Assembly: GCA_019285715.1 (NCBI GenBank)
Contig: CP079108.1
Span: 945,001-1,009,000 of the forward strand
Length of the DNA: 64,000 nucleotides
Direction: 5' to 3'
From: Sphingosinicellaceae bacterium
GTDB taxonomy: Bacteria > Pseudomonadota > Alphaproteobacteria > Sphingomonadales > Sphingomonadaceae
Shown: in pieces, positions 1 through 49,134 of the stretch
Position numbering within the stretch: position 1 is the stretch's first letter
How the letters are laid out: every line of letters begins with the position of its first letter
Position numbers and translations under genes: made by a program
Notes under the pieces: model-generated
Told to the model about the DNA's origin: nothing
What the model saw: only the letters and a program-made list of their open reading frames with translations
Database searches by the model: none

Positions 1-1066
1 TGGCCTCCAGCGGTGCCTGTCTCACGGAGACGGTGTTGCTGCACGTGCCGCGCTCCTTCACCCCCGCGCACCGGTAGTAGTCCTTGCCGGATATCGTGTA
101 GTTCGACCCGCACTCGCCGCATTTGATCAGGCCCGAGAGCAGGTGGCGCTTGCGGTTCCTAGCCTCCGGCGGCACCTCGGCGCCGGGCCGGGCTCGCCGC
201 GCGAACTCCGCGTCGAGGCGCTCGGCGAGCGCGTCGTCGATGATACGAAGTTCCGGCACATCGACCGTCATCCAGTCGGCCGCGTCGCGCAGGCGGTAGC
301 GGCGCTCGCGCCTGTCGGACTCCGGGTTCTTGCGCCATTCACGGCGTTTCCACACGAGCCTGCCCCGGTAAAGCGGGTTACTCAGGATGCCGACCTGCTT
401 CGCGGGATCACCTCGGATCGTCGAAGCGTTCCACTTGCCGCCGCGGGGACCCGGTACGCCGCGCTTGTTCAGGTCCTTCGCGATCGCGATCGACGACCGG
501 CCACTAGCGAATTGCTCGCAGATCCATCTAACGGTTTCGGCCTTGTTCTCATCGATCGAGAGCAGGCCGCGGATCGGCTCGCCGGCGGCATCGTGCTTCA
601 CGACCTTGTCGTAGCCGTAGGCGCGGCCACCGGGGGAGCGGCCTGCGGCGACCACAGCCTCGAGGCCCCTGATCGTCTTCTTCTGGAGATTGGCGAGGTA
701 TATCCCACCGAGCATGCCAGCCACGCCGAGCTTTATCTCATCGATCTCGCCCTCCGACGCCGTGTGCAGACGGACCCTGGAGTAGCGCAGCATTTTGCCC
801 AGCCACTGGATGTCCTCCCCGTCCCGCGCCACACGGTCCATGGACTCCGAGACCACGATGTCGATGCGCCCGTTGCGGACGTCCCGCAACATCCGATTGA
901 GTTCGGGCCGGTCGCGGCTGTATCCGGAGATCTCCGGATCGGCGTAGACGCCGACCACCTTGCCGCCGAGCCGGTCGATCAGCGGTGGCAGCGACGACGC
1001 CTGGTCGTCGCTCGACGAGGAGTTCTGCAGCGCCGTGGAATGGCGCGCGTAGATGGCGACCCGCAT
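1..1066 (-). CDS. Large serine recombinase (resolvase + Recombinase + zinc ribbon), 3' end outside window
   Basis: Site-specific serine recombinase, typical of phage or ICE integrases. The frame starts at an ATG at 1066 with the resolvase signature MRVAIYARHS, where Ser10 is the expected nucleophile. A second resolvase motif (SESMDRVARD) follows near residue 75. The middle part holds a Recombinase domain (GRSPGGRAYGYDK, then WNASTIRGDP near residue 240). The last visible part is a recombinase zinc ribbon with LIKCGECGSNY and later cysteines. No stop occurs before the left edge, so the C-terminus lies outside. The catalytic-domain gene at 1098-1514 lies 31 nt upstream on the same strand, so the two are probably cotranscribed. 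It probably marks one end of an integrated element; its attachment sites cannot be seen here. Confidence 0.9.
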   Translation of the reverse strand, partial: MRVAIYARHSTALQNSSSSDDQASSLPPLIDRLGGKVVGVYADPEISGYSRDRPELNRMLRDVRNGRIDIVVSESMDRVARDGEDIQWLGKMLRYSRVRLHTASEGEIDEIKLGVAGMLGGIYLANLQKKTIRGLEAVVAAGRSPGGRAYGYDKVVKHDAAGEPIRGLLSIDENKAETVRWICEQFASGRSSIAIAKDLNKRGVPGPRGGKWNASTIRGDPAKQVGILSNPLYRGRLVWKRREWRKNPESDRRERRYRLRDAADWMTVDVPELRIIDDALAERLDAEFARRARPGAEVPPEARNRKRHLLSGLIKCGECGSNYTISGKDYYRCAGVKERGTCSNTVSVRQAPLEA

Positions 1067-1097
1067 CTCTTCTACCCATTGCCCGAGGCCGGCGTGT

Positions 1098-1514
1098 CTA
1101 TTCCGGCCATGAGCCCAGTTGCAAGCGCCCGGTCATGTCATGCTCGATCAGGGCGTACTCGCAGCCGTCGTGGGTCCAGTCTTGAAGGTCCACGATCTGG
1201 AAGCGCTTGGGACCGGGCATGTAGAAGGGAATGCGCGTCCGCCCGATGGAATCGATTAGCCTTGCCAGGACTTTCGGGTCCCGGTCGAGCCGGTCCAGCG
1301 AGTTGATCAGGACGGCGGATACCTTGTACCCGCGGATGTCGGCGACGAGCCGGCACAGGCCCGGACGATCCTCGACGGGCACACGCGCAGACGCGTCGTC
1401 ATGGTAGGACAACACTCCGGTCGCACCGAGGGCGCCGGCGAGGGCGACAAGCTCGTTCACAGCCGACGCTGCGGCCACTCTGTCGGTCACGCTCGTCCGC
1501 GTGTAGATAGCCAT
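1098..1514 (-). CDS. Stand-alone serine-recombinase catalytic-domain protein
   Basis: A 138-aa protein that is essentially one resolvase N-terminal domain. It begins MAIYTRTSVTDR, matching the YxRxS active-site motif, and continues with RPGLCRLVADIRGYKVSAVL and SLDRLDRDPKVL, the standard arginine-containing helix. No DNA-binding or Recombinase domain follows; the C-terminus (about 45 aa) ends near HDMTGRLQLGSWPE and is not recognised. I chose ATG 1514 over ATG 1520 because a GAGGAA ribosome site has normal spacing only for 1514. It sits directly upstream of the large serine recombinase and may modulate it. It could also be a shortened, decaying recombinase, but the core residues are intact. 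Confidence 0.75.
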   Translation of the reverse strand: MAIYTRTSVTDRVAAASAVNELVALAGALGATGVLSYHDDASARVPVEDRPGLCRLVADIRGYKVSAVLINSLDRLDRDPKVLARLIDSIGRTRIPFYMPGPKRFQIVDLQDWTHDGCEYALIEHDMTGRLQLGSWPE

Positions 1515-1751
1515 CAGCATTTCCTCATTCCTTTTCTTTGATGGGAGGCGTCGGACGACCGGCGACGTGCTCGGCGGCGGCCTGACGCGCGAACAGGACG
1601 ACCAGGCGCTCGAGTGCCCTTTCACGATCGGACGACGGCATGCCCGTTTGACGCGCGTTCGCGTGCGGTGCGGCCGAGCGGGTCAGGGGTCTTGCGGCGT
1701 GCACGAATGGGAAGTAGGACCGCCCCCGCTAATAGGGTGCAAGAAAGTCAC

Positions 1752-2279
1752 ATGCGCGGCGGCAGAAATTTCCTCTTTCCTCGCAGTGCCGTCCCTCCCG
1801 GCATCGGATCGCACGTCAGGCGCGAGCGCGTCGCCCGGAAGCTCAGCCAAGACGGCCTCGCGCGGCTCGCCGGTTTGCGGCGCGAGACGGTGTGCAGGAT
1901 TGAAGCCGGGAGGCCACCGTCGTCGCACGCGCTTTTCGCGATCGAGTGGGCCCTCGGCCTAGATTCGCCTCATTTCGTCAAGGACTGGAAGGATCCGGCC
2001 TCGCCGGACGAGCCGTCATTGGGCCCCCGCGTTCGTGCCCGTCGGCGGAAGTTGGGCCTCAGCCTCCAGGATCTTGCCGCTGTCTCCGGCGTGGTTGCGT
2101 CGACGATCTCGCGGTTCGAACGCGAGCTGGTCAGCTGCGCCAAGATCGTGACCGAGGACACCGACGAGCACGGTCTCCACCGCGCCAGGATACTGAAGCC
2201 CGACCTTGCCAAGGCTCTTGGATGTTCCGTCGCCGAGCTGCAGGCCTACTGCGACGCGATCGATCCCGGCCCGAATTGA
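1752..2279 (+). CDS. XRE-family regulator with two helix-turn-helix domains
   Basis: A 175-aa DNA-binding protein with two XRE-type HTH units. The first (about residues 18-68) contains VRRERVARKLSQDGLARLAG followed by ETVCRIEAGR. The second (about residues 92-165) contains RRRKLGLSLQDLAAVSG and STISRFERE, with an acidic insertion before a final conserved helix around AKALGCSVAELQAY. It probably represses the neighbouring recombinases or the protease-nuclease operon. It diverges from the recombinase pair and lies 255 bp upstream of the protease-nuclease gene. ATG 1752 is preferred because the first HTH begins about 17 residues later; upstream in-frame codons read through low-quality sequence. 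Confidence 0.8.
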   Translation: MRGGRNFLFPRSAVPPGIGSHVRRERVARKLSQDGLARLAGLRRETVCRIEAGRPPSSHALFAIEWALGLDSPHFVKDWKDPASPDEPSLGPRVRARRRKLGLSLQDLAAVSGVVASTISRFERELVSCAKIVTEDTDEHGLHRARILKPDLAKALGCSVAELQAYCDAIDPGPN

Positions 2280-2534
2280 GGGCCGCAACCAATTATCATT
2301 CGCTTTCGGGCTGGCAGAGTCGATAACCCAGTCGATATGCCATACATCGCGAAGGCGAGATTGATCCTGCCGACAAGACAGTTCCGCCATCGTTGAACGA
2401 GCTAGAGTGCACATCGGCGGCGGCGCGCGCCGGTCCTCGCGCGAAACCTTCTTGAATTTTTAGTTCGGCGCTGGAATCCGGCGGACGGAAATGGCGACCG
2501 ATGCTATCCTGTGAACGTCTTGCGGGGGCGGGTG

Positions 2535-4496
2535 ATGAGCGACGATCAGACAGGGAACCCGAGCTTCGTGGCGACGCAGTCGGCCGAGCTCTCCGCGGAG
2601 GTCGAGAAGGCGGCCATCGCCGACGCGGGCTACGTTCCAGCCGCTGCGAGGGCCCGGCGTCGTGCCCGTGCCGAAGCGGACGACCGCATCGAGATCAGGA
2701 AGGACTTCCTCGAGAACGCGCGGAGCGATCCCAACGGCTTCGAGCGGGTCATCGGCGCAAGTGACCTGATGTCGATAAACTACCTCGACCGCGGACGACG
2801 CGTGGCAGCGGCCGTCTGCCGGATCAAGGTGCCGAGCCCGGGCGGCGCCTGGTACGGGACCGGCTTCCTCGTCGGTCCCAGGCTCCTGATGACCAATCAC
2901 CACGTGATCTCGAACGCCGACGATGCGAGCCAGGCCGAGGCCGAGTTCGGCTACGAGCACGACGTCGACGGCGTCCTGCAGGCGCCGATCTCATTCAACC
3001 TGCGGCCGCACGAGATCTTCTTCACCAATGCGGAGCTCGACGTCACGTTCGTCGCGGTGACGCCTCTGTCCGATCAGGACGTGCCGCTCGAACGATACGG
3101 CAGGCTTCCGCTGATCCCGCTGTCCGGGAAGGCCATCGGTGGCGAGTGGGTGAGCATCATCCAGCATCCCGGAAGCGAACCGAAGCAGATCGCGATCCGC
3201 GCCAGCAAGGTCATCACGCTCGATCCGGAGGCGGCGACCGGCATCGACCTGACCAGGTTCATCCACTACTCGACCGACACCGAGCCCGGCTCCTCCGGAG
3301 CGCCCGTGCTCAACGACCAGTGGCAGGTCATCGCCCTTCATCACAAGGCCGTCCCGGCGCCGAGAAAGGGGGGTAGGGCACCCGCGAAGACGGTTTGGAT
3401 CGCCAACGAGGGGGTGCGGATCAGCGCGATCTTCCGCCTGCTGGAGCAGCAGCGCTTCGAGTGCCCGCAGGCCGGTCTCGTACTGGACCGCCTCGACCAG
3501 TCGCTCGGATACGCGCCCCTGTCACCGGGCGCCACCGCTGGCGAGATCCTGCTCGAGGCCGACCGAACACCGCTGCCTACGGCCCGATGGACTGGGGTCA
3601 TCGGTTACGAGGCCGACTTCCTCAGCGAACGGATCGACCTAGCGAAGATATACGCGCCCGCACTGGCGCGTGGAGAGGTCGCACCCCTGCGCGACGGAAG
3701 CGGCCATGAACTGACGTACCGTCACTTCACTTCGGTCATCCACGCCGGGAGGCACTTCCCCCTCATCACCGCAGTCAACATCGACGGCGAGAAGCTCGTC
3801 CATCCGGGCAAGCGCAAGGACACCTGGCGGCGGGATGCGCGCATCGACGACGTCCACCAGCCTAACGGCGACTTCTACGAGAAGGCGAAGGGCAAGGACG
3901 CGGTGCAGTTCAGCCGAGGACACCAGGTCCGGCTGTTCGATCCGTGCTGGAGCACCTCCACCAAGCCGGAAGCCGCCTTCGAGGAGGCCAAGCTCGGCGC
4001 CGAGGACACGTTCCACTACACCAATGCCGCGCCCCAGGTTCAGGGATACAACGACATCGACTGGGGAAACCTCGAGGACTATCTACTCGACAAGGCACAA
4101 TCGAGCCGCAAGCTGCTGACGGTATTCACCGGCCCGATCTACCGCGACGACGACCCGCTCTACGGCAAGGATCGTCCGGGCGGGCCCTGGCGCATTCCCC
4201 TCTCGTTCTGGAAGATCGCCGTCCTCCAGAAGTCGAAGACCAAGGTGGCGGCGGCCGCGTTCATCGTCGGGCAGACCCAATACGTACAGGCGCTGTACGA
4301 GGCGAAGGTGTTCTCCGGCCTGAAGCCCTACTCCATCGACGAGATGCGCAAGCGACGCATCCAGACCACGATCGCCGCGATCGAACAGGAGACCGGGCTC
4401 GACTTCGCCGCCGTCAAGCCGTTCGACGCCCAGGGGACCCTCGAGGCTACGCGGCAGACGCATTGGATCTCCGACATCGGGGACGTGGTGATCTGA
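2535..4496 (+). CDS. Trypsin-like serine protease fused to DNA/RNA non-specific (NUC1) endonuclease
   Basis: A 653-aa two-domain effector-like protein. After a charged N-terminal helical segment, a trypsin-like peptidase spans about residues 90-300: GTGFLVGPRLLMTNHHV gives His123, NAELDVTFV gives Asp169 and PGSSGAPVLN gives Ser254, a complete triad. The C-terminal half (about 360-620) resembles NUC1/endonuclease G: FSRGHQVR places the general-base His463 in the position of the DRGH motif (with Ser for Asp), followed by FHYTNAAPQ and an N-x3-W-x2-L segment. No signal peptide is visible, so it should act in the cytoplasm. ATG 2535 follows a G-rich ribosome site. The VRR-NUC gene starts 25 bp downstream. 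Protease-nuclease fusions are common in bacterial conflict systems; use here in phage defence is inference. Confidence 0.88.
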   Translation: MSDDQTGNPSFVATQSAELSAEVEKAAIADAGYVPAAARARRRARAEADDRIEIRKDFLENARSDPNGFERVIGASDLMSINYLDRGRRVAAAVCRIKVPSPGGAWYGTGFLVGPRLLMTNHHVISNADDASQAEAEFGYEHDVDGVLQAPISFNLRPHEIFFTNAELDVTFVAVTPLSDQDVPLERYGRLPLIPLSGKAIGGEWVSIIQHPGSEPKQIAIRASKVITLDPEAATGIDLTRFIHYSTDTEPGSSGAPVLNDQWQVIALHHKAVPAPRKGGRAPAKTVWIANEGVRISAIFRLLEQQRFECPQAGLVLDRLDQSLGYAPLSPGATAGEILLEADRTPLPTARWTGVIGYEADFLSERIDLAKIYAPALARGEVAPLRDGSGHELTYRHFTSVIHAGRHFPLITAVNIDGEKLVHPGKRKDTWRRDARIDDVHQPNGDFYEKAKGKDAVQFSRGHQVRLFDPCWSTSTKPEAAFEEAKLGAEDTFHYTNAAPQVQGYNDIDWGNLEDYLLDKAQSSRKLLTVFTGPIYRDDDPLYGKDRPGGPWRIPLSFWKIAVLQKSKTKVAAAAFIVGQTQYVQALYEAKVFSGLKPYSIDEMRKRRIQTTIAAIEQETGLDFAAVKPFDAQGTLEATRQTHWISDIGDVVI

Positions 4497-40833: not shown

Positions 40834-41302
40834 GCGTCGAGGCTCACGCCCGATGCTGGGGCGTCGAAGACCGCGGCTTGAGGCAAGCCGATGCGGCTCG
40901 GCGAACCGAAACCGAGGATGGCACACTGCCGTGCTTCGGATCTCGCCGCGACGCTGCTCGCCGTCTCGGCTTCCGTATCTTCAGCCCGCGCCACTGATCG
41001 ACGGAAGCCGGTCGGCACGCAGGCTGTTCGCACCACTTGGAGTCCGACGTTTCCCACGCTAAAACAGTCCTGACACAACTTAAGGCGCAGAAACGTGCGC
41101 TTGAGAGGGCTGCATAGGGTGACCCGTGTCACAGGGGGTGCGCTGTCCCGGGGGCGACCGCCGCATCGGCGACGGTCGCTTGCCTCGGAGGCCTAATCAG
41201 CCGATTGCACGTCACTCACCGGGGCCGGTATAATAGAACACTCGAACCTCACAGAGGTATGTCGCTTGCGAATGACGATCTGCGTTCGAAAATCCTGAGC
41301 TT
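40834..41302. other. Intergenic region
   Basis: About 470 bp without a supported gene. A GTGAC-N4-GTCAC dyad occurs at 41119-41132, with no gene close enough to assign it. The composition shifts towards lower GC from about 41200 as the accessory segment begins. Confidence 0.4.
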
Positions 41303-41809
41303 ATGCGTCGGACGGAAATCACCATGCTCGTCGCCTTGGCGAACTCAAAGCTGTCGGATGGCGATCCTGTCCAAGCGCAGGCCACCGCATCCGGCGGCGC
41401 CGTGGTCGTTCAAGGTTCTCGCGTCACCCGTATCTGATGGCCGACGAAGGCAAGGTCTACACCTATGTCGGCTGCAAGTTTCCGCGCATGGCAGCTTAAA
41501 CCACTACGCTCGCGAGGACGTCACGCCCGGCATTTTTAAGAGCAGCAACACCGTCGGAACTTCTTCTCGATCGTCAGGCGCGGTGTCATCGAAACGTATC
41601 AGAAAAGGAGAGAGGCGCACCGGTCGCACTATACTGCCGAGTTCGGTCTCCGCTACAACACCAAGATCAGCGACAGCGAGCGCGCCGACGAAGCTCCGTC
41701 AGGCGCGTCCGGCAAGCGCCTGACCTATCGGCAGGCTGACGCTGCCCAGACAGTAGGCCGAAAAGCAGCGCACTTTCGACGATGGCGCAAACACAAGATG
41801 TGGTCTTGA
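41303..41809 (+). pseudogene. Degenerate IS1595-family (ISxO2-like) transposase remnant
   Basis: Pieces of one transposase lie in different frames. A frame through 41430-41500 reads YLMADEGKVYTYVGCKFPR, like the conserved LMTDE region. A second frame from 41561 to the TGA at 41807-41809 reads FFSIVRRGVIETYQKRREAH, then YTAEFGLRYN and GASGKRLTYRQ, which are the closing motifs of ISxO2-like transposases. At least two frameshifts and loss of the N-terminus make it inactive. I could not identify terminal inverted repeats. The small frame at 41303-41437 may be its decayed upstream part. Confidence 0.65.
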
Positions 41810-42031
41810 AACCGCAATCCACAGACTCCAGCGCACCGCCTGTTGACTCTCCGGAACGTTTAACGAACAACTAATACGAACGATTGAGGCCGGACGCTAC
41901 CAACGTCCGGCCTCGGTCGATCCGCAACGATGGCAATCGCTCGCGGGTCAGATGGGTGCGCCCGACTTTACTCTATGCCGATCCCCGGAAGCGTCAAGGG
42001 CGATTGTCGATACATATAAGGCAATCGTTAT

Positions 42032-42262
42032 ATGGCTATCTACCAAGACGCATCCGTAGTCCGAAAGGGTTCCGGCGCTGCTTTTGAAAACACTTACAAG
42101 CCGGGAACCGCCTGCCCGCACTCAGGCATCTACCGGTGCCAAAGCTGCGGGCATGAGGTCGCATCCAATAAGCGTCAGCCGCTTCCGCCCCAGCATGAGA
42201 AGCCGCATACCGGTGCGATCATCTGGAAGCTGGTGGTGTATGCGGAGCATAAGAAGGATTAG
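42032..42262 (+). CDS. Small conserved protein with a zinc-ribbon-like CxxC motif
   Basis: A 76-aa protein: FENTYKPGTACPHSGIYRCQSCGHEVASNK, then QPLPPQHEKPHTG. The PG-x-x-CP-x-SGIY-x-C-x-x-CG pattern is that of a widespread short family with a YjzC-like fold and unknown function; Cys and His residues could hold a metal. Between the IS remnant and the RiPP-like cluster, on the plus strand, it is apparently a single gene. The upstream region is AT-rich with no strong ribosome site. Confidence 0.6.
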   Translation: MAIYQDASVVRKGSGAAFENTYKPGTACPHSGIYRCQSCGHEVASNKRQPLPPQHEKPHTGAIIWKLVVYAEHKKD

Positions 42263-42482
42263 GCTCGTCTAGCGATAGCGCTCGCACTGACGACCGTTCA
42301 TACCGGCCCAAAGTGCGGGCGCAATTCCAAGTACTGTCCGTGCCGTCGATACCAGCTCGTCGGCCGGGATCGTGCGCTGCATGAAGACCGCGACAGCTTC
42401 AATGTCGCCGTCCGTCCGCAGGAGTAGAGGATGTTCGGGTGGACGCGGCCGTGCTGCCAGCGAGGCGGCGAACCGCAGTCAC

Positions 42483-42656
42483 CTAGCCTCTGCCTGCGGC
42501 ATCATACGTGAATTTGATGACAACGCCGCTGGGGTAGTTGGCCTGTTTAAGGCGCCCCAGTTCGTCATAACTGTAACTGAGAGACACCTGCGCCACTACG
42601 GGCGTTACCATGCACACGCCAATAGCCACACAGGCGATTTTGAAAAGGATCGACAT
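42483..42656 (-). CDS. Short secreted YD/RHS-repeat peptide, probably a gene fragment
   Basis: A 57-aa frame with a clear signal peptide (FKIACVAIGVCMVTPVVAQ) followed by one and a half RHS/YD repeats: SYSYDELGRLKQANYPSG, then VVIKFTYDAAGRG and a stop. Full RHS proteins have dozens of such repeats, so this is either the stump of a large toxin-type gene or a micro-protein of the kind seen near other RHS genes. An AGGGG lies upstream of ATG 42656. No further repeats are visible downstream of the stop. Confidence 0.5.
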   Translation of the reverse strand: MSILFKIACVAIGVCMVTPVVAQVSLSYSYDELGRLKQANYPSGVVIKFTYDAAGRG

Positions 42657-43264
42657 TGGACTGCCCCTCAAACACCCGACTCGGCTTCTAACCGGAATGT
42701 GAGAATATTCCGTTACCGAAGCAGATATTCACTCGGGATACTCTTACCGCAAGACTAAGAGTTGCTTTCTTCTATTAACTAAGACGGGGACGTCTACGTA
42801 GGGCAAGCGGGTTCATGAACGAGCAGGCAAGTGGATGGCACGAAAGAGGCGGCCGGACCCGGCCCCAGCGGTCCCGGCAGGTCAGGTTCAGCAGCAGCGA
42901 CGTTGCAATCAGCAGAGTTGAATGACTATCGGCCTGCAAGCGGAACCGCAAGCCGAGCAACGCGCACTTTCAGTATGTCGGGTGAAGCCCGCCTCAATGG
43001 TCGTCAGGCCTGCAGCTCGATGTGATCGGGCAACTTCGCTGTGATCGCTCCGCCGTCCCCGACTTCCTAGCAACCTCGCCCCCAACCTGTTCCATTGTTC
43101 CCGAACGGTCTTCGACACGCTCTGAATTCGATGACCAGCAACCCGACCCCGTGGCCGACCGCGGTCGTATTGGCCGAACGGCATTGGTCGACTGTTATAA
43201 TCTGACTTTGACAGCATACGCCAAGCTGTTAGCCTGAAGATGAATCACGTTGAGGCAAGCGCTG
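42657..43264. other. Intergenic region upstream of the RiPP-like cluster
   Basis: About 600 bp with only short, uncharacteristic frames. It should contain the cluster promoter. I looked for a leader-core precursor peptide and found no convincing one. Confidence 0.4.
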
Positions 43265-43975
43265 ATGACCAAGACCTTGCTGAAAGATGCATCGGTCCAG
43301 ATCGATGATTATTTCGGCTTCATGATCATTGACGACCTGTTAACTTCTACCGACCGTGAAAGGCTGCATGCCCACGTTATTCAGGATAGCTTCTTCTACG
43401 AGAACTCTTTCGAATGGAACCGCGTCTGGCATCCCCTTTCCGGAATGGCGCTGTTGACTGGTCCGAGGTCATATGGGGCGACTGGCAAGCCTGGTCCTAG
43501 GTTTCCGACCGACACCGCCTACGACCTGTTCTTCGAAGCCGTGGGGCACCGGTTGGAGATCATCGGTGAATTCCTTCGGCTCGGGTCGGAGGAGGTCAGA
43601 TACGTGATGTCCGCCTATCTTTACAGGTCCGGCTGGGGGCTCCCGTGGCACGAGGACATAGGACAGGAAAGCGAGTACAAGGGCGCGTTCACCTACTATC
43701 TTCATGATCGCTGGCGCGGCAACTGGGGTGGCGAACTCATGATCCTCGCCGACGAGCGGGTCGGTCAAGGTTCCGCAGGGGCGATCGATCTGGCGTTCGC
43801 ACAGGGAACGGGTCTGCGGTCGCCGTCGAGCGTCGAGAACGGTGTCGGCACTTTCATCTTTCCGAAATCGAACCGGCTCGTCGTCATGAGACCGAAGGTG
43901 CTTCATTCGGTCAATCCGGTGTCGGACCTTGCGGGGGAGAACATGCGGTTCTCACTCGCCGGTTTCTACCTGTAG
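43265..43975 (+). CDS. 2-oxoglutarate/Fe(II)-dependent oxygenase (prolyl-4-hydroxylase-like)
   Basis: A 236-aa double-stranded beta-helix oxygenase. The iron ligands are HxD in GLPWHEDIGQ and the distal His in PKVLHSVNPV; the 2-oxoglutarate-binding Arg follows in MRFSLAGFYL. The core also has WRGNWGGELMILAD, typical of the 2OG-FeII_Oxy_3 type. ATG 43265 is preferred over TTG 43250. It precedes the small protein and radical SAM genes on the same strand with short gaps, so it is likely a tailoring enzyme that hydroxylates a peptide in this cluster. Confidence 0.8.
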   Translation: MTKTLLKDASVQIDDYFGFMIIDDLLTSTDRERLHAHVIQDSFFYENSFEWNRVWHPLSGMALLTGPRSYGATGKPGPRFPTDTAYDLFFEAVGHRLEIIGEFLRLGSEEVRYVMSAYLYRSGWGLPWHEDIGQESEYKGAFTYYLHDRWRGNWGGELMILADERVGQGSAGAIDLAFAQGTGLRSPSSVENGVGTFIFPKSNRLVVMRPKVLHSVNPVSDLAGENMRFSLAGFYL

Positions 43976-43992
43976 GTGAGGGCTACCAGATC

Positions 43993-44262
43993 ATGACCGA
44001 AGAGACTCCGGCAGTCGAGATGGAGAGGCATCGCGAGATGCTTCTGGTCCTTGGGCACGGGAGCGTCGGCCCGATTGCGTCCGAGGAGAATGATCGTGCT
44101 GACGCGATTCCCATGGACGAGGACGCGGAAGCCGACGAATGGACGTCTCTGATCCTGAATGCGAGTACGAAGCTCGTGACGGAGGCGCGGCTGCGCACGT
44201 GCGTGGCCGGGCTGGCGGCTGTCAACCGCTACATCGACGAACGGACAAGCACGGACCGCTAA
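43993..44262 (+). CDS. Small acidic protein, candidate RiPP precursor or accessory protein
   Basis: An 89-aa protein with no recognised family, lying 17 bp after the oxygenase and 58 bp before the radical SAM gene, with GTGAGGG as ribosome site. It has an acidic centre (ENDRADAIPMDEDAEADEW) and a helical C-terminal part (LILNASTKLVTEARLRTCVAGL) ending in DERTSTDR. Length and position fit a RiPP precursor, but there is no obvious Gly-Gly cleavage site and only one Cys, so it could equally be an accessory or leader-binding protein. Confidence 0.6.
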   Translation: MTEETPAVEMERHREMLLVLGHGSVGPIASEENDRADAIPMDEDAEADEWTSLILNASTKLVTEARLRTCVAGLAAVNRYIDERTSTDR

Positions 44263-44320
44263 TCCTGGACAGGCTTGGTTCTGGGTCTATCTCTCATTTT
44301 GGAATTGGGATGGTGAAGGC

Positions 44321-46201
44321 ATGAAGGTCGCACTCGTCGGTATGCCCTGGTTCTGGGCCCACATGCCCTCGATCCAGCTCGCGGTCGTGAAGGACATGTT
44401 CGCGAAATGCGACGTGGGTTCGGATGTATTCGAATTCTACGCGGATTTCGCCGACCTGTTCGGCGTCGATCTCTACGGCAAGATCGCGAACACCGGCACG
44501 TTCCTTGGAGAACGCCTGTTCACGCAGTTCTACTACGACGAGCTGCTTCAGCAGGCGCCGTCGGAAGTGCCCGGGCTGTCGTTCGACGAGCCTCACGTAG
44601 AGCAGCACATCCTCCGGTTCGGGAAGCCGCTCGTCGAGCACTTCCTGGAGCAATGCCTCGCTAGTGGCGATTGGCCCAGCTATGACGCGATATGCCTGAC
44701 GCTAACCGCCCAGCAGGTCGGCGCGTCCATGGCCTTCGCCAAACTCGTCAAGGCGAGGCACCCTCAGATCCCGATCATCGTCGGCGGAGCTGGCTGCGCC
44801 GGCGAAATGGGCCGAGCGGTACTCGAAGTCTGCGCCGAATTCGGCATCGCCGTGCACGGTGAGGCGGAAGCCACCGTGCCGGCACTGGTCGAGGCGCTTC
44901 GTGGCGAGCGAGCACTTGCCGACGTGCCTGGCATCAGTTGGCGCGCTTCGGATGGCGGCATCCGAAGTTCGGTGGCGACAAAGGTCCACGTGTTCGGCAG
45001 CGCGCGAGGTGCGTTGAACTACGACGCGTATTTCGAGCGGGTGAAGACCCTGCCGGGTCTCAACCGGCTTCCTGTGTGGGTGCCGTTCGAGAGCAGCCGC
45101 GGCTGCTGGTACGGCGAGAAGTCCCAGTGCACGTTCTGCGGCCTCAATGAGATAATCAAGTTCCGCCAGCGGGACACGAGCGTCCTCTACGACGAGTTAC
45201 ACGAATACGAGCGGGCCTACGGGCGGACCCATTTCTTCGCCGTCGACCTCATCATGCCGCGCACCTTCTTCGCCGACTTCCTGCCTCAGGTGATCGCATC
45301 CGGAAAGCGGTGGACGATCTTCTACGAGGTCAAGTCCAACATGCGACGGGGGCAGGTGGACATGTTGGCTAAGGCGGGCGTGCGCTGGATCCAACCTGGC
45401 ATCGAGAGCCTAAACGATCACGTTCTGAAGCTGATGCGGAAGGGAGTGACCGCAGCTCACAACGTTCAGACGTTGAGGCTCGCTGCGGAGATGGGGGTGA
45501 CGGTAAGCTGGAACCTGATCTCCAACTTCCCGCGCGAGACGCCTTCCGACTATCATCAGATGCGGGAGGTGTTCCGCCATCTCCACCACCTCGATCCGCC
45601 GAGCGGGCTGGCCCCGTTCGAGGTCCACCGCTTCAGTCCTTTTCACGAGGAGCCTGAAAAGCACGGCGTCCGGCTGTGCGGCCCGCATCGCAAGTACGAC
45701 GCCGTGTTTCCCGTCGACCGGACCGTGCTCGAGCGCCTGGTCTACAGGTTCGAATACGAGCTTATCCGGCCGAGCAGTCCCGAACTCGCTGCCGCCCACG
45801 ACGAGGTGGACGAAGCCGTCGTCGCCTGGAAGCAGGCGAATGCACGGCACGCGAGGTTCGAACTGACGCTGCAGGGCGACGGCTCGGCGCATCTGTTCGA
45901 CACCAGGTTAGACGGTGCCGCCCGGCAGTGGGCATTGCCGCCGGCGGAGACGTCGCTGCTGCGGTTCCTGGACGAGATGAGGCCGGCGGTTCGGCTCGTC
46001 GGCGAGTTCGCGGAAGCCGAGGCTGAAGCCTTTCGTGTCCTAGGCGGTCAGGTCGGCGTGGAGCGGTTGCTGGATCACTGGCGCGAAGAGGGCACGGTAA
46101 TCCAGCTGTCCGGCATGGTTCTCGCGTTGCCCACCATACCGGCGCCAGCGCCGGGAATCCCGTCCGTCGAAGCACTCGAGATCGCCGAGCTGGTCGAATA
46201 G
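44321..46201 (+). CDS. B12-binding radical SAM RiPP maturase (rSAM_ocin_1-like)
   Basis: A 626-aa enzyme of the ribosomal peptide maturation radical SAM protein 1 type. It starts VALVGMPWFWAHMPSIQLAV, the family signature. A B12-binding-like domain (about 100-230) has IPIIVGGAGCAGEMGRAVLE and GIAVHGEAEATVPALVE. The radical SAM core begins at SSRGCWYGEKSQCTFCGLN (Cx7Cx2C), the diagnostic form. Later motifs are WTIFYEVKSNMR and IQPGIESLNDHVLKLMRKG. The C-terminal 170 residues are cluster-specific. Members C-methylate or otherwise modify a precursor peptide; the product here is unknown. Confidence 0.88.
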   Translation: MKVALVGMPWFWAHMPSIQLAVVKDMFAKCDVGSDVFEFYADFADLFGVDLYGKIANTGTFLGERLFTQFYYDELLQQAPSEVPGLSFDEPHVEQHILRFGKPLVEHFLEQCLASGDWPSYDAICLTLTAQQVGASMAFAKLVKARHPQIPIIVGGAGCAGEMGRAVLEVCAEFGIAVHGEAEATVPALVEALRGERALADVPGISWRASDGGIRSSVATKVHVFGSARGALNYDAYFERVKTLPGLNRLPVWVPFESSRGCWYGEKSQCTFCGLNEIIKFRQRDTSVLYDELHEYERAYGRTHFFAVDLIMPRTFFADFLPQVIASGKRWTIFYEVKSNMRRGQVDMLAKAGVRWIQPGIESLNDHVLKLMRKGVTAAHNVQTLRLAAEMGVTVSWNLISNFPRETPSDYHQMREVFRHLHHLDPPSGLAPFEVHRFSPFHEEPEKHGVRLCGPHRKYDAVFPVDRTVLERLVYRFEYELIRPSSPELAAAHDEVDEAVVAWKQANARHARFELTLQGDGSAHLFDTRLDGAARQWALPPAETSLLRFLDEMRPAVRLVGEFAEAEAEAFRVLGGQVGVERLLDHWREEGTVIQLSGMVLALPTIPAPAPGIPSVEALEIAELVE

Positions 46202-46203
46202 AC

Positions 46204-47244
46204 GTGCGGTTCCGGGATGCCCTGGTTCACCCGCAGACCTCGCTTGAACGGGGCCGGAATGCGCTCCTCGCTCACGACGGTGCGATCGCCATGACGATCG
46301 TCCGGGAGATCGCGCGAAGCCTCAAGAACGTCGTCTCCGTCGCATTCGTGATCGTGGCCGCCATCGTCCTGGCACGCGAAGCCCTCTGGTCCCTCGCCAG
46401 TCCAACGAGGGTCCTCGCGACCACGGGGATCGCCTCCTTGGCCGCCATCGCCCTAGACGTCGCACTTCGAATGCGTCTGCGGTTCTTCCAGATGGAGTCC
46501 TTACTGTCTCCCGCCGCGCTCGCCCCCCGCTTCCGCAACGGCTACCGTCTCCGGCTCCATCTCGTCTCGAGCGTCGCGGCATGCGCGGCGCTTTGCATCC
46601 CGGACGCTGCCACGGCGGTCGGCGTTTTCGCCTCTTGGTGGCTGTCGCTCGTTCCGGCGCAGCTACTGGCATTCATAGTAGGGGTCCGCGACATGAGGAT
46701 CCGATCCATCGCGGGACCCTGGTTGCGGATGTGGCGGTCCAGACACGCTGGAGCCGGCGCCCTGCCCGTTCTGCTAGCGCTTGCCGGCGGGATCGCCCTA
46801 GCCGGGTTCTCGGGCGCCAATTGGGCGACGTATCTGGCGGCGGCGGCCGTGTTGGCGACGATCGCCTGGTACTCGCCTGTCGATCACGGCGTCGTGAACT
46901 TCGAGCGCATGATGGGCCACTCGTCACTGCGATCGCTCGCGAGGCGCCTGGTCCGACCCGCGGGGATGTCGCTGCTGTCGACCGCGGTGGCCGCCCTGAC
47001 CGGATCCGCTGGCTTTGCTCTACTCGTCGTAGCGACAACCGGCGCAGTGCTGCTGTACAGGGCTGCGACGGTTCAGCTCGCCCGCTTCCTTCCGGCTCAC
47101 CAGGTCGGGTTCGCCATGCTGGTCATCCTGTTCGCTGCCTTCGCCACCGCGTTCGCCGTTCCTTTTGCCGCGCCGGTTCTCCTTCTCGCGCTGGTCGGTT
47201 GGATGCTCGTCCGGTCGGGTCGGACCACTTGGCTCATCGAATGA
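46204..47244 (+). CDS. Multi-pass membrane protein, probable permease partner of the ABC ATPase
   Basis: A 346-aa protein with about eight hydrophobic segments, the first at NVVSVAFVIVAAIVLA and the last at PVLLLALVGWMLV. No characterised family is obvious. The GTG at 46204 is only 2 nt after the radical SAM stop; ATG 46291 (MTIVREIARSL) would remove 29 non-hydrophobic residues and is an alternative. Its stop overlaps the start of the ATPase gene (ATGA), which argues that the two form one ABC transporter, likely exporting the modified peptide or giving immunity to it. Confidence 0.65.
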   Translation: MRFRDALVHPQTSLERGRNALLAHDGAIAMTIVREIARSLKNVVSVAFVIVAAIVLAREALWSLASPTRVLATTGIASLAAIALDVALRMRLRFFQMESLLSPAALAPRFRNGYRLRLHLVSSVAACAALCIPDAATAVGVFASWWLSLVPAQLLAFIVGVRDMRIRSIAGPWLRMWRSRHAGAGALPVLLALAGGIALAGFSGANWATYLAAAAVLATIAWYSPVDHGVVNFERMMGHSSLRSLARRLVRPAGMSLLSTAVAALTGSAGFALLVVATTGAVLLYRAATVQLARFLPAHQVGFAMLVILFAAFATAFAVPFAAPVLLLALVGWMLVRSGRTTWLIE

Positions 47245-47972
47245 GCGGAGCCGCCATCGCTGTCTCCGAGATGTCGGTCCTGCGCGGTGGCAACCTCGTC
47301 GTCGACCGGATGTCCATGACGATCGATCACGGTAGATGGTTCGGACTCATCGGCGCGAACGGCTCAGGCAAGACGAGCTTCCTGCGTGGCCTGGTCGGGC
47401 GTCTACCCTGCTATGCCGCAAGCTGCGCGATCGACGGCGTCGAACTCCGCGACGAACCGCGACTCCGGGCGGCGAGGATCGGGTTCATGCCGCCTTCGGA
47501 GCACCTGCCAGCCGCGCTGACCTGCCGCCAGCTCTTTTTCATCGCCCAGCCCGATGAAGCCATCTGGCGAAACGGCGTCTCGGACGTCAGCGAGGCCATC
47601 GGGATCGGCAAGCTGCTCGACCGGCGGGTGGGCGATTGCTCGGCGGGGATGAAGCAGCGGATCGCGATCGGTGTCGCGTTCGCCACGGGCAAGGACACTG
47701 TCATCCTCGACGAACCATTCAACTGGCTCGATCCCGTCGCCGCGTTCGACCTACGTATCGCTCTTCGCAAGCGGGTGGAGAAAGGGCTCACGCTCGTCAC
47801 CGCCTTGCATGACATGCTGACGCTCACATCCTGCGATGAAGGATCACTCATCGGCGACGGTAAAGTAATTGCTAATCTAAGTAACTTCGATATTTACGCA
47901 GGCAGAAACGATGTTACCGGGTTCGAAACTGAAATGATTGCCTTGCTGCGCAAGCATTCGCAGTTCGCTTGA
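47241..47972 (+). CDS. ABC transporter ATP-binding protein
   Basis: A 243-aa ATPase with Walker A GANGSGKTSF, a signature motif in DCSAGMKQRIAIG (CSAGM in place of LSGGQ), Walker B DTVILDEPF and an H-loop in TALHDML. The divergent signature and short length fit peptide export or immunity transporters of the ABC-2 type. It is translationally coupled to the membrane protein and ends the cluster. The last 60 codons and the DNA beyond are noticeably AT-richer than the rest of the operon. Confidence 0.85.
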   Translation: MSGAAIAVSEMSVLRGGNLVVDRMSMTIDHGRWFGLIGANGSGKTSFLRGLVGRLPCYAASCAIDGVELRDEPRLRAARIGFMPPSEHLPAALTCRQLFFIAQPDEAIWRNGVSDVSEAIGIGKLLDRRVGDCSAGMKQRIAIGVAFATGKDTVILDEPFNWLDPVAAFDLRIALRKRVEKGLTLVTALHDMLTLTSCDEGSLIGDGKVIANLSNFDIYAGRNDVTGFETEMIALLRKHSQFA

Positions 47973-48107
47973 CAATGATCGATCCTTCTATACCGTTTGG
48001 CTTCCGCGAATCTTTTCATGACTCTCGTGGCGTGCTTCGCGGTCCATTGATTTGGAAAGGAAGTATTTATGGCACAGGTTGTTGCACTTAGGGTCAGGAC
48101 TCGTTGA

Positions 48108-48497
48108 TCAGAGCCAGAAGATGACGGTGGCGGCGAGCGCGATGGCGGAGAAAAAGACGGTTGGGCATCGATCGTAGCGGGTGGCGACACGGCGCCAGTC
48201 CTTCAGGCGGCCGAACATGATCTCGATACGGCTGCGGCTTCGGTAGCGGCGCTTGTCGTATTTGATCGGTGAGAGCCGCGATTTTCGGCCCGGGATGCAG
48301 GGTGTTATGCCCTTTGCCTGCAAGGCGTCCCGATACCAGTCGGCGTCGTAGCCGCGGTCGGCGAGCATCCACCGCGCCTTGGGCAGATCGTCGAGCAGGG
48401 CTGCAGCGCCGGTGTAGTCGCTGACCTGGCCGGCGGTCATGAAGAAGCTCAGCGGGCGACCATCGGCATCGGTGACGGCGTGGAGCTTCGTGTTCAT
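48108..48497 (-). CDS. IS5-family transposase, OrfB
   Basis: A 129-aa DDE domain: MNTKLHAVTDADGRPLSFF, then RWMLADRGYDADWYRDAL with the second Asp and SRSRIEIMFGRLKDWRRVATRYDR with the catalytic Glu in the Y-(2)-R-(3)-E-(6)-K-like signature of IS4/IS5 transposases. Probably made as a fusion with OrfA by programmed frameshifting rather than from its own ATG. Confidence 0.85.
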   Translation of the reverse strand: MNTKLHAVTDADGRPLSFFMTAGQVSDYTGAAALLDDLPKARWMLADRGYDADWYRDALQAKGITPCIPGRKSRLSPIKYDKRRYRSRSRIEIMFGRLKDWRRVATRYDRCPTVFFSAIALAATVIFWL

Positions 48498-48865
48498 GCC
48501 GCCTTTGGTGCGGCCGATGAGCCGGCCAAGACCCCCTTTTTAACCCGCAGGCTCGATGCCGTGCGGTGGGCCTTCAAATAGGTCGCGTCGATCATGATCG
48601 TCTTCGGCGTAGCGCTCGCGGCGGCCAGTCCTTCCATCATGCGCAGGAACACGCCCCTCTCGCCCCATCGCTTCCAGCGGTTGTAGAGCGTCTTGGACGG
48701 TCCGTACTCCCTGGGAGCATCACACCAGCGCAACCCGTTGCGGTTCACAAATACGATGCCGCTCAACACCCGCCGATCATCGACACGGGGCCTACCATGG
48801 CTCTTGGGGAAATACGGCTCAAGCCGAGCCATCTGCTCGTCGGTCAGCCAATACAGGTCGCTCAT
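48494..48865 (-). CDS. IS5-family transposase, OrfA
   Basis: A 123-aa N-terminal part of the transposase: LYWLTDEQMARLEPYFPKSH, RVLSGIVFVNRNGLRWCDAP and KTLYNRWKRWGERGVFLRM (DUF4096-type region), then KTIMIDATYLKAHRTASS, which supplies the first catalytic Asp. A -1 frameshift at A5G5 (48532-48541 on the plus strand as C5T5) would lead into OrfB through KGGLGRLIGRTKGG. ATG 48865 is chosen; an upstream in-frame ATG at 48904 lies close to the inverted repeat. Confidence 0.85.
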   Translation of the reverse strand: MSDLYWLTDEQMARLEPYFPKSHGRPRVDDRRVLSGIVFVNRNGLRWCDAPREYGPSKTLYNRWKRWGERGVFLRMMEGLAAASATPKTIMIDATYLKAHRTASSLRVKKGVLAGSSAAPKAA

Positions 48866-49134
48866 GCTCAGTCTCCTTGCGAAGCCTGAATCAGATCGCG
48901 ACACTCAGATCAATGGGTCCTGACCCTAGGGCTGGCTGACGAACATAGAACCTTGTCGCGATCAGCTTATCGTGTTTTCACGCAGAACTGCCGAACGTTA
49001 TCGTGTTTGGGCGTTTGCACCTTGGTTGTATTCACGTTGGTCAGTTTGATGCCGCTGCATATCCTTATCGTGCGCTATCACAGGCGGTCCCAGCCGAGAT
49101 GGCCACATCCGACTTCGGCGCCGGCGGGCTCGCT

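What the first reader, a model, noticed from the sequence alone, without database searches (positions are those of the whole stretch)
43265..47972. Putative RiPP cluster: 2OG oxygenase, small acidic protein, rSAM_ocin_1 maturase, ABC exporter
The radical SAM protein carries the diagnostic VGMPW...PSIQL start and Cx7Cx2C cluster of the RiPP maturase 1 family. An iron oxygenase, an 89-aa protein in precursor position and a coupled membrane/ATPase pair complete a coherent cluster. I do not recognise this combination, and the small protein has no known precursor leader. The product could be a C-methylated and hydroxylated peptide.
Basis: partly seen in the sequence, partly recalled or inferred. 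Interest (0 to 1): 0.75.

Follow-up and report, generated by a model that had tools for sequence, protein, structure and literature searches.

The report
Peptide-antibiotic cluster cut by transposon
This is most likely a gene cluster that once made a chemically modified small peptide, but a jumping gene has landed in the first codons of what is probably the real peptide gene, and the dehydrating enzyme found beside that gene in a relative is missing, so in this strain the cluster may be a leftover.

Summary
In detail: five co-directional genes (43265-47972) encode a 2OG-Fe oxygenase, an 89-aa protein, a full-length rSAM_ocin_1 (TIGR03975, Cx7Cx2C) radical SAM enzyme, a membrane protein and an ABC ATPase. 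The reading of the 89-aa protein as the precursor is probably wrong. The same five genes, in the same order, occur in Qipengyuania proteolytica, where a 100-aa ORF with a precursor-like hydrophobic, Ser/Thr-rich tail (..AWSITVTTVFIFASPAY) follows, and then a cyclase-free LanKC-like kinase. At that spot the window has the same ribosome-binding site and start (MAQVVAL versus MSNVVAL), cut after codon 7 by an 836-bp IS4/IS5-type element (48091-48926). Neither the rest of that ORF nor any LanKC/HopA1-type dehydratase was found in the genome. Sister radical SAM enzymes also sit beside kinase + lyase dehydratase genes (APH + HopA1; Acrocarpospora and genomes of the same order). Best explanation: remnant of a RiPP pathway combining kinase-type Ser/Thr dehydration with PoyC-like C-methylation, hydroxylation and export; the 89-aa protein is more likely a helical accessory. 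Evidence is comparative only; no product is known. New variant of a known kind, moderate interest.

The parts
43265..43975 (+). 2OG-Fe(II) oxygenase, 236 aa (putative peptide hydroxylase)
   Evidence: PF13640 40.6 bits; HxD 129-131 and His214; 64% identical to the Qipengyuania counterpart
43993..44262 (+). 89-aa acidic protein; start may be the internal ATG at 44020; probable helical accessory rather than precursor
   Evidence: no Pfam/NCBIfam match; 39% over 77 aa to the Qipengyuania ORF in the same place, most conserved in the C-terminal block ARLRTC.AGL.AVN..I; AF2 long helix 43-88 with pLDDT about 89-95
44321..46201 (+). radical SAM RiPP maturase, 626 aa, TIGR03975 rSAM_ocin_1, Cx7Cx2C at window 45104
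   Evidence: 478.6 bits, cut-off 281.85; motif; tree
46204..47244 (+). multi-pass membrane protein, 346 aa, probable ABC permease partner
   Evidence: hydropathy segments; 27% to the Qipengyuania counterpart; no family match; AF2 model unusable, pLDDT 48
47241..47972 (+). ABC transporter ATPase, 243 aa, overlapping the membrane gene by 4 bases
   Evidence: PF00005 75.4 bits; Walker A/B and signature motifs; 50% to Qipengyuania
48069..48089 (+). first seven codons (MAQVVAL) of the probable true precursor gene, preceded by an AAAGGAA ribosome-binding site; truncated
   Evidence: same place, ribosome-binding site and M..VVAL start as L001:5367-5669; M..VVAL occurs at 1 of 1516 ATGs in the window (this one) and at 3 of 15782 in all loci, two of those being the Qipengyuania ORF itself
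48091..48926 (-). IS4/IS5-type insertion element, 836 bp, flanked by TA on both sides, interrupting the probable precursor gene
   Evidence: inverted ends GGGTCAGGACTC/GGGTCAGGACCC; transposase ORFs 48108-48497 (DDE_Tnp_1 65.3 bits) and 48494-48904 (DUF4096 79.3 bits); 7 further copies in the genome, two at 87-88%

Best explanation
The five genes are the remaining part of a RiPP biosynthesis operon. In the complete version (Qipengyuania proteolytica) the inferred substrate is a 100-aa precursor made from an ORF just after the ATPase gene. A cyclase-free LanKC-like lyase/kinase would dehydrate Ser/Thr of its hydrophobic C-terminal core, the TIGR03975 radical SAM enzyme would C-methylate unactivated carbons (as PoyC does on Val/Ile), the 2OG oxygenase would hydroxylate, and the membrane/ATPase pair would export the product or protect the producer. 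The 89-aa protein is a conserved accessory, perhaps a recruiter of one enzyme. In the window strain an IS4/IS5-type element interrupts the precursor gene after codon 7; the rest of it and the dehydratase gene are missing, probably deleted, so the pathway is likely dead or runs with altered substrates. Shown: gene content, synteny, truncated start, IS boundaries, no detected dehydratase. Inferred: all chemistry, precursor identity, the deletion, the accessory role.
For: Five-gene order conserved with L001/L004. L001:5367-5669 ends in AWSITVTTVFIFASPAY and precedes a RamC_N + kinase protein (PF25816 63.7 bits; LanL model 129.5 bits, N-terminal parts only). The window has the matching ribosome-binding site and MAQVVAL at 48069, cut by the IS at 48091. 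No match in the genome for RamC_N, HopA1 or the Qipengyuania kinase, nor for the precursor. The maturase tree puts window + Qipengyuania (100/100) in an 8-row clade (100/100) with Acrocarpospora and five genomes of the same order. APH kinase + HopA1 lyase were found by Pfam in Acrocarpospora L002 (APH, HopA1) and in L041; look-alike ORFs lie in L040, L042, L043, L044. A Salipiger plasmid has a related kinase preceded by a Thr-rich precursor-like ORF. Precedents from papers: PoyC Cx7Cx2C C-methylation (PMC11285071), PoyI hydroxylation with PoyF dehydration (PMC9505594), APH + HopA1 dehydration in class V lanthipeptides (PMC9486802).
Against: Only one intact relative was found, so precursor identity rests on position, composition and a seven-codon match. 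Removing the IS with one TA copy gives MAQVVALRAG-stop, so a deletion or an earlier mutation has to be assumed; the flanking TA pair cannot tell which, because the genome's other copies also sit at TA where their ends are visible. The five remaining ORFs are intact with conserved motifs, as if still selected. The 89-aa protein's C-terminal block is well conserved and lies next to the maturase gene, which a precursor could also do. Pathways with C-methylation and hydroxylation but no dehydratase exist (pythonamide ere cluster, PMC9505594).
Confidence: 0.66

Rival explanations
1. The 89-aa protein is the precursor: the maturase and oxygenase act on its conserved C-terminal block and the ABC pair exports it; the cluster is complete and the downstream Qipengyuania genes are an unrelated second module.
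For: Adjacent to the maturase and conserved in the same place in Qipengyuania; the conserved C-terminal block contains Thr, Cys, Val, Asn; no dehydratase is needed for a C-methylated/hydroxylated peptide; all five ORFs intact.
Against: The conserved block is predicted as part of a long helix with high confidence and is rich in Arg; the sequence varies most at the N-terminal half, the reverse of the usual conserved leader; a more typical precursor ORF exists in the intact cluster, and its start survives in the window.
Confidence: 0.18
2. Both small proteins are substrates, or the 89-aa protein is a carrier on which a small molecule is built (pearlin-like), and the window strain has kept one branch.
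For: Two small ORFs in Qipengyuania; carrier-peptide logic exists in the 3-thia-amino acid pathway (PMC9303977, listed).
Against: No PEARL or other carrier-peptide enzyme among the family matches to the cluster proteins; no direct support.
Confidence: 0.08
3. The MAQVVAL start at 48069 is a chance resemblance; the strain never had the 100-aa gene there, and the element only landed in an intergenic region.
For: Only seven codons; the joined empty site reads MAQVVALRAG-stop.
Against: Similar position after the ATPase gene (about 97 versus 68 bases), same AAAGGAA site and VVAL at codons 4-7; outside these genes the pattern was seen at about 1 in 15,000 ATGs.
Confidence: 0.08

Closest known systems
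Polytheonamide (poy) and pythonamide (ere) proteusin pathways
   Same: Cx7Cx2C cobalamin-type radical SAM C-methyltransferase (PoyC; also PoyB, EreB) with a 2OG-Fe hydroxylase (PoyI, EreI); poy also has a lanthipeptide-type dehydratase (PoyF)
   Different: No nitrile-hydratase-like leader match on either small protein; no epimerase and no N-methyltransferase in the cluster; LanKC-like kinase instead of a LanM domain in the intact relative; a two-gene ABC pair
Class III/IV lanthipeptide synthetases (LanKC/LanL)
   Same: The intact relative has the RamC_N lyase-like and kinase parts directly after the precursor-like ORF
   Different: No cyclase part in the 423-aa protein; no Cys in the putative core; not found in the window genome
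Class V lanthipeptides (cacaoidin, lexapeptide)
   Same: Sister maturase loci carry APH-like kinase + HopA1-like lyase, the dehydration pair of class V
   Different: Window and Qipengyuania clusters lack that pair; a radical SAM C-methyltransferase is added

Membership tests
TIGR03975 rSAM_ocin_1 RiPP maturase | full-length model match above the curated cut-off | tested here: met
   478.6 bits versus 281.85, residues 3-604 of 626
TIGR03975 rSAM_ocin_1 RiPP maturase | Cx7Cx2C iron-sulfur motif | tested here: met
   CWYGEKSQCTFC at residue 262
Cobalamin-dependent C-methyltransferase | B12-binding domain | tested here: inconclusive
   PF02310 21.2 bits, below the cut-off of 32.1, residues 121-190
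Cobalamin-dependent C-methyltransferase | methyl transfer to an unactivated carbon of the peptide | not testable with these tools
   needs biochemistry
Proteusin | nitrile-hydratase-like (NHLP) leader on the precursor | tested here: not met
   no NHLP match for the 89-aa protein, its relative, or the Qipengyuania 100-aa ORF
Class III/IV lanthipeptide | LanKC/LanL synthetase in the cluster | tested here: not met
   no RamC_N and no match to the Qipengyuania kinase in the window genome; the intact relative has lyase + kinase parts without cyclase
Class V lanthipeptide | APH-type kinase plus HopA1-type lyase | tested here: not met
   no HopA1 match in the window genome; the pair was found only in sister maturase loci
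RiPP precursor (89-aa protein) | conserved leader followed by a modifiable, flexible core | tested here: inconclusive
   conservation is highest in the C-terminal block, predicted as helix; based on two sequences only
RiPP precursor (89-aa protein) | is modified by the cluster enzymes | not testable with these tools
   needs co-expression and mass spectrometry
IS4/IS5-type insertion element | terminal inverted repeats, DDE transposase in two overlapping ORFs, TA on both flanks, multiple genomic copies | tested here: met

The most novel reading that the evidence does not exclude
The maturase clade (window, Qipengyuania, Acrocarpospora, and a group of genomes of the same order) marks an undescribed kind of RiPP in which PoyC-type radical SAM C-methylation is combined with kinase + lyase dehydration (LanKC-like without cyclase, or APH + HopA1) on precursors that lack the NHLP leader, with a dedicated small helical helper, giving linear dehydrated, C-methylated and hydroxylated hydrophobic peptides.
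Probability: 0.4. Interest if true: 0.6.

Novelty: new variant of a known kind. Interest (0 to 1): 0.42.

Why it matters
It moves the search for the product from the window strain, where the pathway is probably broken, to Qipengyuania proteolytica, where it looks intact and testable. It also points to a link between cobalamin-type radical SAM C-methyltransferases and two kinase-type dehydratase set-ups outside proteusins. For genome mining it is a warning: a tidy-looking cluster can have lost its substrate gene to an insertion element.

Tried and rejected
Local similarity of the 89-aa protein to 222-aa ORFs in three genomes: these read as carbonic anhydrases, a chance match around VLGHGS. Homology between the 89-aa protein and the conserved 89-93-aa ORF beside sister maturases: none (hhalign probability 0.3); that ORF to the 100-aa ORF: not significant (1.6). 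AF2 of the membrane protein: unusable. Foldseek of the 89-aa model against PDB: no match. Plasmid, viral-contig and class-wide searches for closer maturases: none (plasmids at most 34% in the rows listed, class at most 44% over part of the protein). Solved structures: only a weak general radical SAM match for the maturase, none for the oxygenase. Remnants of the precursor or kinase after the element: none convincing. Serratia and Streptomyces oxygenase relatives (29-32%) sit in neighbourhoods with no annotated radical SAM maturase. Promoter and terminator scan: not above chance. Literature: no paper found in the held library on this combination.

Full report
Observation. Five + strand genes lie at 43265-47972 as described. 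The radical SAM protein is a clear, full-length TIGR03975 member (478.6 bits, cut-off 281.85) with the Cx7Cx2C motif CWYGEKSQCTFC. The oxygenase passes the 2OG-FeII_Oxy_3 cut-off and has HxD...H. The ATPase has the ABC motifs; the membrane protein matches no family above cut-off and could not be modelled, so 'exporter' is inference from gene pairing.

Conservation. A scan of 84,980 genomes with the maturase gave two relatives by exact peptide patterns, Qipengyuania proteolytica (61%) and Acrocarpospora pleiomorpha (41%); such a scan finds close relatives only. Samples of 398 genomes of the order and 385 of the class gave no other close maturase, and in a family sample of 398 the oxygenase was found only in the window genome. 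In Qipengyuania all five genes occur in the same order with 64, 39, 61, 27 and 50% identity. The unit is therefore real, and rare in what was searched.

A second small ORF. In Qipengyuania a 100-aa ORF follows the ATPase gene (L001:5367-5669), with a charged leader-like part and a hydrophobic Ser/Thr-rich end, AWSITVTTVFIFASPAY. Next comes a 423-aa protein matching RamC_N (63.7 bits) and the N-terminal half of the LanL/LanKC models (129.5/105.9 bits) without a cyclase part. A kinase of this type on a Salipiger plasmid is also preceded by a precursor-like ORF with a Thr-rich tail. This makes the 100-aa ORF the better precursor candidate.

What happened in the window. 97 bases after the ATPase gene the window has AAAGGAA, a short spacer, then ATG and MAQVVAL, parallel to AAAGGAA and MSNVVAL in Qipengyuania. 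After codon 7 an 836-bp element begins (48091-48926) with inverted ends, two overlapping transposase ORFs of IS4/IS5 type and TA on both sides; seven more copies are in the genome. The M..VVAL start is rare: 1 of 1516 ATGs in the window (this one), and in all loci 3 of 15782, two of them the Qipengyuania ORF. Taking the element out with one TA gives MAQVVALRAG-stop, so the rest of the gene is gone. A deletion, for instance by recombination between two element copies, is the simplest guess, not shown. No homologue of the precursor, RamC_N, HopA1 or the Qipengyuania kinase was found in the genome. One search had no positive control; each rang in one control genome, and the precursor search recovered the Qipengyuania gene itself.

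Wider clade. In a 27-row maturase tree the window and Qipengyuania group at 100/100, inside an 8-row clade (100/100) with Acrocarpospora and five genomes of another family of the same order. Pfam finds an APH-type kinase and a HopA1-type lyase near the maturase in L041 and in Acrocarpospora; ORFs of similar sequence and size are seen in L040, L042, L043 and L044, not each tested. That pair dehydrates Ser/Thr in class V lanthipeptides (PMC9486802). So the maturase clade is repeatedly found with kinase-type dehydratases, which makes their absence in the window look like loss. The sister loci have their own conserved 89-93-aa ORF beside the maturase, not related by profile comparison to either small protein here.

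The 89-aa protein. It is a real gene (conserved in place, 39% over 77 aa). Conservation is highest in the C-terminal block ARLRTC[VI]AGLxAVN, which AF2 predicts as part of a long helix, residues 43-88, pLDDT about 89-95 over most of it, after a disordered acidic stretch (two sequences only, and helices are easily over-called). This suits a protein-protein adaptor better than a core peptide, but does not exclude a substrate.

Mechanism and comparison. Chemistry is by analogy: PoyC, with the same Cx7Cx2C motif, C-methylates Val/Ile of polytheonamide (PMC11285071); PoyI hydroxylates and PoyF dehydrates (PMC9505594). The present system works like that toolkit but is not filed as a proteusin: neither small protein has an NHLP leader match. 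The B12 domain match is below cut-off, so cobalamin dependence is inferred from the family.

Verdict. Observation confirmed; interpretation partly supported. Most likely an IS-truncated RiPP operon whose true precursor and dehydratase are lost here and can be studied in Qipengyuania. All of this is comparative; no product or activity is known.

Noticed in passing
window 42483-42671 (-), within 40834-43264: A 62-aa ORF with RHS/YD repeat match (PF05593, 45.5 bits) in an otherwise gene-poor 2.4-kb stretch upstream of the cluster; perhaps a remnant.
   Followed up: no
L065:7286-9446 (Salipiger sp. CCB-MM3 plasmid): A cyclase-free RamC_N-type kinase preceded by a 91-aa ORF with a Thr/Cys-rich tail (AACTCHSRTVITTSTPLCTTTTTTTSA) and followed by a SAM methyltransferase: looks like an uncharacterised RiPP locus in an alphaproteobacterium from mangrove soil.
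   Followed up: partly
L040-L044: Sister maturase loci: radical SAM, conserved 89-93-aa ORF (ending DEDMMDSAFF in most), subtilase, Reg_prop histidine kinase, APH kinase, HopA1 lyase; a second candidate RiPP system with its own sensor and protease (domains tested in L041 only).
   Followed up: partly
L049 (G187:C50) 195-3718: Two convergent TIGR03975-like radical SAM genes tail to tail within 3.6 kb.
   Followed up: no
L053 (G393:C1:1425026-1426642): A TIGR03975-like radical SAM match with an internal TAG stop, possibly a decayed gene.
   Followed up: no
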